From: Halobaculum marinum
GTDB taxonomy: Archaea > Halobacteriota > Halobacteria > Halobacteriales > Haloferacaceae
Direction: 5' to 3'
DNA: 64,000 nucleotides
Assembly: GCF_029338555.1 (NCBI RefSeq)
Contig: NZ_CP119989.1
Span: forward strand, 2,294,001-2,358,000
Position 1 is the stretch's first letter. Each line of letters opens with the position of its first letter. Shown piece after piece: positions 1-1,005 of this stretch. Position numbers and translations under genes: made by a program. The notes beneath the pieces were generated by a model, which saw only the letters and a program-made list of their open reading frames with translations, ran no database searches and had not been told where the DNA came from.

Positions 1-678
1 GTCCTCGGGGACACGACTGATCCGTCGGACGATGTTCGAGTTCTCGAAGGCGATTTTCTGGAGGACGACGCCGAAGTCCTTCCCCCACGCTTCGACGGTT
101 TCGGCCTTCTCTTCGAGTTGGGGGAGGAGTCGCTTGTCGAGACAACTCCGATAGTCCATCTGGCGCGACCCCACCGGCGGGTCGGGTGGGTGGCCGTCGT
201 CGATTTCGTCCATGTACTCGTTGAACTCCTCGCGGATGCTCCCCCCCGAGAAGTAGGAGGACTGGATCTCGACGGCCGCGAAGTCGGTGATCTCGCCGTC
301 GCGGTGGATCACCGGGATGAGGTCTATCCGCCCGGCCTCGCCGAGCGTGCGCTCTTCGAGGACGAAGAAGGACCCGTCGGCGTCGGGGAAGAGGTGTTCG
401 CGCATGTCGTCCCAGACGACGTCGGACTTGAACCGCTCGGGACAGGTGATGACGGCGTTGCCGTCGGGCCCGGAAGCACTACACACGCCGAGCGGGCGAG
501 TCTCTCCGTGCTCCTCGCTCACGTCGGTGGCTTTCGTGCACGCGTAGCCGTTGAACGGGCACGTCGACGAGTAGATGGGGCGCCCGCTTTTGGTCTCCAT
601 CACCTGTTCGCGACGCTCGGGGATGTCGTGTGTCGAGTTGAACCCGTACACTTCGCGAAACAGCGGTGTATCCGGCAT
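1..678 (-). CDS. NotI-family restriction endonuclease (N-terminal 226 aa, cut by window edge)
   Basis: Reading leftwards from the ATG at 676-678 gives an open frame of 226 codons that runs off the window. It matches the NotI endonuclease architecture. Four cysteines form the N-terminal metal-binding site (C40, C47 in CPFNGYAC, C66 in GVCS, C79 in ITCPERF), comparable to the iron-binding Cys4 site of NotI. They are followed by a PD-(D/E)XK core with D119 in GRIDLIPVI and E137/Q139 in AAVEIQSS; NotI itself uses an ELEIQ-type E-x-Q signature. It would cleave a rare GC-rich palindrome as a dimer. No methyltransferase is present to its right; a partner, if any, lies to the left beyond the window. 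The family assignment comes from recalled motifs, not a search. The C-terminal half is unseen. Confidence 0.8.
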   Translation of the reverse strand, partial: MPDTPLFREVYGFNSTHDIPERREQVMETKSGRPIYSSTCPFNGYACTKATDVSEEHGETRPLGVCSASGPDGNAVITCPERFKSDVVWDDMREHLFPDADGSFFVLEERTLGEAGRIDLIPVIHRDGEITDFAAVEIQSSYFSGGSIREEFNEYMDEIDDGHPPDPPVGSRQMDYRSCLDKRLLPQLEEKAETVEAWGKDFGVVLQKIAFENSNIVRRISRVPED

Positions 679-813
679 CGGTGACGATTTTGACGTGGTT
701 CTGATAAGTGTACTGTCCCGACTGTGGCGCCCGTCCAGTGGACGTAGCGCCCCCAATCTCATCGCGGATAACTGGGGAGTCACTCGTAAGTAACCGAACG
801 TCAAGGTGGGAGT

Positions 814-1005
814 ATGCACACGAACGACCGGCGTACCCAACTGGAGGGGGAGCGGCTCGAGGACCTGCCCGAGTTCGAGCTTCGGTACCTCTTCGACGAC
901 GGGGAGCGGCCGAGTTCGGTGACGATCTACGCGCCCGAGTCGCTGGAGACGACGTGGCTCACCGCCGACGCCGACGTGGCAGTGTCACTCGACGAACTCC
1001 GCTGA
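814..1005 (+). CDS. Small haloarchaeal protein, DUF7511-like
   Basis: This 63-aa acidic protein starts at the ATG at 814. Its tail (TTWLTADADVAVSLDELR) closely resembles the tail of the 70-aa protein at 47528-47740 (TTTWLSVNAECLVSLEDAR). The two are probably members of one small haloarchaeal family, which I associate with DUF7511. The pattern is a beta-rich core ending in a W-L-x-V/A-D motif. There is no signal peptide or membrane segment. The function is unknown. It stands alone between the NotI-like gene, which is divergent, and the stress-gene cluster. Confidence 0.7.
   Translation: MHTNDRRTQLEGERLEDLPEFELRYLFDDGERPSSVTIYAPESLETTWLTADADVAVSLDELR

What the first reader, a model, noticed from the sequence alone, without database searches (positions are those of the whole stretch)
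1..678. NotI-family restriction endonuclease at the window edge, with no visible methyltransferase partner to its right
The visible 226 codons hold the Cys4 metal site (C40, C47, C66, C79) and a D119...E137-x-Q139 core that parallels NotI. NotI-type 8-bp cutters are uncommon in archaea. In a genome this GC-rich, an 8-bp GC site would be abundant, so protection or an altered specificity would matter. No DNA methyltransferase lies within 63 kb to the right.
Basis: partly seen in the sequence, partly recalled or inferred. Interest (0 to 1): 0.65.

Follow-up and report, generated by a model that had tools for sequence, protein, structure and literature searches.

The report
Archaeal NotI-type enzyme beside its methylase
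A salt-loving archaeon carries a complete restriction-modification pair, a NotI-like DNA cutter and the DNA methylase that lies next to it just outside the window, and the scarcity of one six-letter word in its genome suggests that the pair reads CGGCCG rather than NotI's eight-letter site.

Summary
Window 1-678 (minus strand) is the first 226 codons of a complete 286-aa NotI-family endonuclease; its stop lies 183 bases left of the edge. All metal-site and catalytic residues align with NotI, and NotI is the only significant fold match for a relative's model. The "missing" methyltransferase is an edge artefact: a convergent 710-aa DUF1156-type methyltransferase ends 47 bp from the endonuclease stop. 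The pair, plus a histidine kinase, is a ~4.8 kb insert between secY and a small gene that are neighbours in two congeners. The same convergent pair occurs in one other of 391 Halobacteria, from another family. The 8-bp reading is not supported. CGGCCG is jointly the most depleted of 1613 hexamers in these two genomes against congeners, whatever the outer bases. By CGGCCG/GCCGGC ratio they are the two lowest of 367 site-rich genomes. Neither has a C5 methyltransferase. Predicted: an orthodox Type II system reading CGGCCG (EagI-like), protected by N4-methylcytosine. Specificity and modification are inferred, not measured. Relatives of the endonuclease pair with three other methyltransferase classes, so their sites must differ. 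Ordinary as a kind of system; the methyltransferase pairing and predicted site are the new parts.

The parts
1..678 (-). NotI-family restriction endonuclease, codons 1-226 (N-terminal Cys4 domain and D119...E137-x-Q139 core). The gene continues 183 bases left of the window to G000:C1:2293818, 286 aa in all. Its partner methyltransferase (710 aa, plus strand, G000:C1:2291638-2293770 = L003:1638-3770) and a PAS histidine kinase (G000:C1:2290140-2291528) lie wholly left of the window, so they cannot be listed as parts in window coordinates.
   Evidence: PF12183 85 bits E 6e-24; ORF and frame; invariant residues; fold of a 36%-identical relative matches NotI 3c25; methyltransferase PF01555 57 bits, motif I DPFMGGGTT at 90, motif IV DPPY at 489
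702..709 (-). TATA-like box ACTTATCA 24-31 bases before the endonuclease start codon, as expected for a leaderless haloarchaeal transcript; weak evidence
   Evidence: read from the sequence
774..1005 (+). Right flank of the ~4.8 kb insert: similarity to congeners resumes at 774 (G385) or 812 (G109); conserved 63-aa gene 814-1005 that directly follows secY in G109 and G385

Best explanation
A complete, horizontally acquired orthodox Type II restriction-modification system in a haloarchaeon. The endonuclease has the NotI fold: an N-terminal Cys4 metal domain (iron in NotI) and a PD-(D/E)xK-like core with D119, E137 and Q139, so it should cut as a dimer with Mg2+. The convergent 710-aa DUF1156-type amino-methyltransferase protects the host. 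The most likely recognition site is CGGCCG (EagI-like, 6 bp) and not GCGGCCGC. As this site holds no adenine, protection should be N4-methylcytosine. Unmodified CGGCCG in incoming viral or plasmid DNA would be cut. Shown: gene content, family and fold relation, intact active-site residues, conserved pairing in two families, insertion against an empty site, and selective depletion of CGGCCG in both carriers. Inferred: catalytic activity, the exact site, the modified base and the defence role.
For: Complete 286-aa ORF with PF12183 at 85 bits. Relatives keep C40 C47 K49 G64 C66 C79 P80 R82 D119 E137 Q139 invariant, and these align with NotI C42 C55 K57 G63 C65 C81 P82 R84 D160 E182 Q184. AlphaFold2 model of the full-length relative L036 (pLDDT 82, pTM 0.84) matches NotI 3c25 at E 4.8e-8, probability 1.0; the best non-NotI match is E 0.28. 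Methyltransferase 47 bp away, convergent; same arrangement in G290, endonuclease 64% and methyltransferase 73% identical; no other of 391 genomes has this methyltransferase above 39% identity over its length. Empty site in two congeners; insert GC3 0.81-0.87 against 0.93 for secY and the permease. CGGCCG observed/expected 0.60 in G000 and 0.52 in G290 against 0.81-0.92 in seven congeners; first of 1613 hexamers, combined z -11.2, runner-up -4.7; whole-genome CGGCCG/GCCGGC 0.57 and 0.39 against 1.04-1.70 in ten congeners of G000, the two lowest of 367 site-rich genomes; depleted with all four outer bases, single-change hexamers not depleted. No C5 methyltransferase in either genome. Host avoidance of orthodox Type II sites is a documented effect (PMC4687349).
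Against: Specificity rests on correlation in two carrier genomes; no third carrier was found. Depletion can be a trace of a lost system (PMC4687349), and CGGCCG-type C5 methylases are predicted in many haloarchaea (PMC6471742). G123, which has a distant relative of the endonuclease with an SPPY-type methyltransferase family partner, also shows CGGCCG depletion (0.45 against 0.74 in one congener), so the signal is not unique to the pair. AGGCCT is mildly co-depleted. The motif IV DPPY is more usual in adenine methyltransferases (own knowledge), whereas CGGCCG requires cytosine modification. The structure model is of a relative; the model of the window fragment was poor (pLDDT 54).
Confidence: 0.77

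Rival explanations
1. The pair is a true NotI isoschizomer reading GCGGCCGC, as the family name suggests.
For: NotI fold and identical active-site residues; CGGCCG is the core of the NotI site; GCGGCCGC itself is about 0.4-fold against congeners when scored against its reversed word.
Against: ACGGCCG, CCGGCCG and TCGGCCG are depleted too (0.37, 0.63, 0.66 of congeners) and GCGGCCGC is not depleted beyond its inner hexamer (O/E 1.03), so selection acts on six bases. Relatives paired with Dam-type adenine methyltransferases cannot read an A-free site, so the family name does not fix the site.
Confidence: 0.08
2. A Type II pair with some other specificity; the CGGCCG depletion comes from a lost or unrelated system, or from composition.
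For: Only two carriers; avoidance can outlive systems (PMC4687349); AGCT also tops the 4-mer list in the joint test.
Against: AGCT depletion is stronger in congener G109, which lacks the pair (0.38), and G290 lies near its congeners. Congeners of similar GC do not lack CGGCCG. The two carriers are from different families and neither has a C5 methyltransferase.
Confidence: 0.13
3. The endonuclease is inactive or orphaned and the methyltransferase acts alone or in a BREX-related (Hma/DUF499) system.
For: The methyltransferase resembles DUF1156 proteins of DUF499 systems; many haloarchaeal methyltransferases are orphans (PMC10609329).
Against: No DUF499 ATPase or helicase beside it; neighbours are a kinase, secY and unrelated genes. 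The endonuclease ORF is intact with all active-site residues, and the pair is conserved across families. Sites of non-orthodox systems are rarely avoided (PMC4687349).
Confidence: 0.06

Closest known systems
NotI (Nocardia otitidis-caviarum, PDB 3bvq/3c25)
   Same: Fold, Cys4 metal site, D...E-x-Q core; part of a restriction-modification system
   Different: Shorter (286 against 383 aa); sequence link only by profile, alignment and fold; predicted 6-bp site CGGCCG instead of GCGGCCGC
EagI / XmaIII specificity group (C^GGCCG; own knowledge)
   Same: Predicted recognition site CGGCCG
   Different: No EagI sequence was available here, so kinship is untested
PF12183 endonucleases of bacterial plasmids (e.g. 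pEST4011, Aeromonas 4-kb plasmid, Thermus pTbrSNM4-1c)
   Same: Same family, 28-33% identity, beside a methyltransferase in each of the plasmids looked at
   Different: Partners are C5 or Dam-type methyltransferases, so their sites must differ at least in part
HmaB / DUF1156 methyltransferases of DUF499-centred BREX-related systems (PMC12839542)
   Same: Permuted order of motifs, partial profile matches
   Different: Partner here is a Type II endonuclease, no ATPase or helicase; shorter (710 against about 880 aa)

Membership tests
NotI-family restriction endonuclease (PF12183 and NotI fold) | Match to PF12183 above the curated cut-off | tested here: met
   85 bits against 22
NotI-family restriction endonuclease (PF12183 and NotI fold) | Four-cysteine metal site | tested here: met
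   C40 C47 C66 C79 invariant, aligned with NotI C42 C55 C65 C81
NotI-family restriction endonuclease (PF12183 and NotI fold) | Catalytic D...E-x-Q | tested here: met
   D119, E137, Q139 aligned with NotI D160, E182, Q184
NotI-family restriction endonuclease (PF12183 and NotI fold) | NotI three-dimensional fold | tested here: met
   Shown for the full-length relative L036, 36% identical to the window fragment; only NotI entries significant. The window fragment's own model was too poor
NotI isoschizomer (8-bp GCGGCCGC) | Selection on GCGGCCGC rather than a shorter site | tested here: not met
   Avoidance is of CGGCCG in all outer contexts; 8-mer O/E 1.03
Orthodox Type II restriction-modification system | Separate endonuclease and methyltransferase genes side by side | tested here: met
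   Convergent genes 47 bp apart; conserved in G290
Orthodox Type II restriction-modification system | Both enzymes act on the same site | not testable with these tools
   Only indirect: genome avoidance of CGGCCG
DUF499-centred BREX-related / Hma system | DUF499 ATPase and helicase beside the methyltransferase | tested here: not met
   Neighbouring genes are secY, a PAS kinase, the endonuclease and a permease

The most novel reading that the evidence does not exclude
A DUF1156-type methyltransferase, a kind known from multi-gene BREX-related defence, serves here as a stand-alone Type II partner that makes N4-methylcytosine at CGGCCG. The NotI-type nuclease would then be a portable cutter that has exchanged among four unrelated methyltransferase classes while changing its site.
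Probability: 0.4. Interest if true: 0.55.

Novelty: new variant of a known kind. Interest (0 to 1): 0.42.

Why it matters
Type II endonuclease genes in archaea are hard to recognise and under-counted (PMC10609329). This one comes with a testable site prediction made from genome avoidance in two unrelated carriers, and with a methyltransferase class not expected in a simple Type II pair. If right, the name 'NotI family' should not be read as 'cuts GCGGCCGC', and DUF1156-type enzymes can be m4C Type II methyltransferases. It also shows how the window edge created an apparent orphan.

Tried and rejected
Single-protein searches of PDB and of genome contigs found nothing; a five-sequence profile against PDB found no NotI. 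PF12183 does not hit NotI even at E 10, so it was not used as proof of kinship. Structure of the window fragment was too poor to use (pLDDT 54). AGCT as the site: rejected because congener G109 without the pair is lower. No phage record holds the endonuclease. No direct repeats or tRNA at the insert edges. Avoidance in carriers of the distant SPPY-paired relatives (G082, G123, G257) gave no clean shared word; CTCGAG was the clearest hexamer down in all three, but it is low in many genomes. The G297 hit (21 bits) was set aside: it is below the cut-off and overlaps a better-scoring gene on the other strand.

Full report
OBSERVATION. Window bases 1-678 on the minus strand are an open frame that runs off the left edge. 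The window lies at G000:C1:2294001-2358000. With the sequence to the left the frame is a 286-aa ORF that ends 183 bases left of the window. It matches Pfam NotI (PF12183) with 85 bits, cut-off 22.

PARTNER. The gene to the left, L003:1638-3770 on the plus strand (G000:C1:2291638-2293770), encodes a 710-aa DNA methyltransferase and converges on the endonuclease with 47 bp between the stops. It has motif I DPFMGGGTT at 90 and motif IV DPPY at 489, the permuted order of DUF1156-type enzymes, with matches to N6_N4_Mtase (57 bits), weakly to DUF1156 (20.7 bits, below its cut-off) and partly to NF042963 and HmaB. The apparent absence of a methyltransferase is thus an effect of where the window was cut.

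INSERTION. In congeners G109 and G385 secY is followed within about 85-140 bp by the 63-aa gene at window 814-1005; in G000 the interval is about 4.8 kb and holds a PAS histidine kinase, the methyltransferase and the endonuclease. Several other congeners carry other genes in the same interval. The inserted genes have GC3 0.81-0.87 against 0.93 for secY and the permease. No tRNA or direct repeats mark the edges.

CONSERVED PAIR. Of 391 Halobacteria genomes five exceed the PF12183 cut-off, and only G000 and G290 strongly. G290, in another family, has the same convergent pair: endonuclease 64%, methyltransferase 73% identical. The other long methyltransferase matches in the class sample are at most 39% identical and most come from longer frames. 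So endonuclease and methyltransferase track each other. Wider searches of the two families found no third carrier.

IS IT REALLY NotI-LIKE? The Pfam model named NotI does not detect the NotI enzyme (the NotI sequence used was confirmed 383/383 against PDB 3bvq). Direct and profile searches of PDB sequences also missed it. Three other tests make the link. A profile of ten relatives against NotI gives P 2.7e-7 over the Cys4 region. A MAFFT alignment puts NotI C42, C55, K57, G63, C65, C81, P82, R84, D160, E182, Q184 and G190 opposite residues invariant in the family. The predicted structure of the full-length relative L036 (pLDDT 82, pTM 0.84) has NotI 3c25/3bvq as its only significant match, E 4.8e-8 to 5.1e-7, the next being E 0.28.

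PARTNERS OF RELATIVES. Where a neighbourhood was inspected, PF12183 relatives sit beside methyltransferases of different classes: C5 (Novosphingobium, Paraburkholderia with Vsr, Sedimenticola), Dam/D12 (Rhodobacteraceae, Aeromonas, pEST4011, Thermus), SPPY beta-class (Chitinophagaceae, Burarchaeum, Gammaproteobacteria, Halapricum, Haloprofundus) and the DUF1156 type here. An adenine methyltransferase cannot protect an A-free site, so specificity varies within the family and cannot be read off its name. In turn, compact DUF1156-type methyltransferases of Tabrizicola, Acidiphilium and Rhodococcus plasmids follow a different, unannotated ORF with a PD...E-x-K-like stretch.

SPECIFICITY. Orthodox Type II sites are avoided in about half of the host genomes studied, more so with long residence (PMC4687349). 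In 400 kb of G000 and 200 kb of G290, CGGCCG has observed/expected 0.60 and 0.52, against 0.81-0.92 in five congeners of G000 and 0.81 and 0.85 in two of G290. Among 1613 hexamers tested without choosing any beforehand, CGGCCG is the most depleted in both carriers jointly, combined z -11.2, the next -4.7. In whole genomes the ratio to the reversed word GCCGGC is 0.57 in G000 and 1.04-1.70 in ten congeners. Over 391 genomes G290 (0.39) and G000 (0.57) are the two lowest of the 367 with at least 1000 GCCGGC sites, the next being 0.67 (ranks read from the table by eye). Six genomes with at most 223 CGGCCG sites are lower than G000 and were set aside as site-poor. All four outer bases show the depletion and no single-change hexamer does, so the selected word is six bases long. 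Neither carrier has a C5 methyltransferase, and G000's other PF01555 enzyme is an SPPY enzyme with counterparts in G290, G143 and G091. As CGGCCG holds no adenine, the partner should make N4-methylcytosine; this is inference. A 4-mer, AGCT, led the 4-mer list but was rejected because a congener without the pair is lower still.

LIMITS. Two carriers; correlation only. G123, with a distant relative of the endonuclease, also has low CGGCCG (0.45 against 0.74 in its one sampled congener), and the ratio to GCCGGC misses such genomes because GCCGGC is itself nearly absent there. C5 methylases predicted for CGGCCG occur in many haloarchaea (PMC6471742). REBASE was not available, so an existing automatic entry for this locus cannot be excluded.

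VERDICT. An intact, horizontally moving Type II pair of a known kind, with a methyltransferase class unusual for such a pair and a predicted EagI-like site.

Noticed in passing
L009:5765-5920 (G290), just upstream of the methyltransferase: A small ORF (about 47 aa, VSDRKTTIRVAESTKERLKERG...) ends at the methyltransferase start and looks like a ribbon-helix-helix regulator; nothing like it was seen before the methyltransferase in G000. It could be a controller of the pair.
   Followed up: no
L079:1543-2370, L080:3129-3947, L083:3214-3963: Unannotated proteins directly before compact DUF1156-type methyltransferases on bacterial plasmids share YPDF..V...EGYE(I/V)KGL, a possible PD-(D/E)xK endonuclease family without a Pfam model.
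   Followed up: partly
G172, G176, G147, G273, G325, G123 (genera g32, g58), whole genomes: GCCGGC is almost absent (53-334 copies) while its reversed word CGGCCG is common (1388-5665 copies), suggesting long-resident systems reading GCCGGC.
   Followed up: no
Genus g1 samples (G000, G385, G109, G296, G146, G340): CTCGAG is strongly depleted in the whole genus (O/E 0.25-0.48) while G290 has an excess (1.48); not linked to the pair studied here.
   Followed up: no
G082 (Haloprofundus marisrubri), L183-L187: GATC is nearly absent (O/E 0.03 against 0.42 in two congeners), with TCGCGA also low.
   Followed up: no
L172-L177 (IMG/VR contigs): Relatives of the NotI-type endonuclease occur on viral contigs; L172-L174 have C5 or DPPY-type methyltransferase frames nearby.
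   Followed up: partly
Pfam PF12183, against window 1-678 and NotI: The model named after NotI does not detect the NotI enzyme itself even at E 10.
   Followed up: yes
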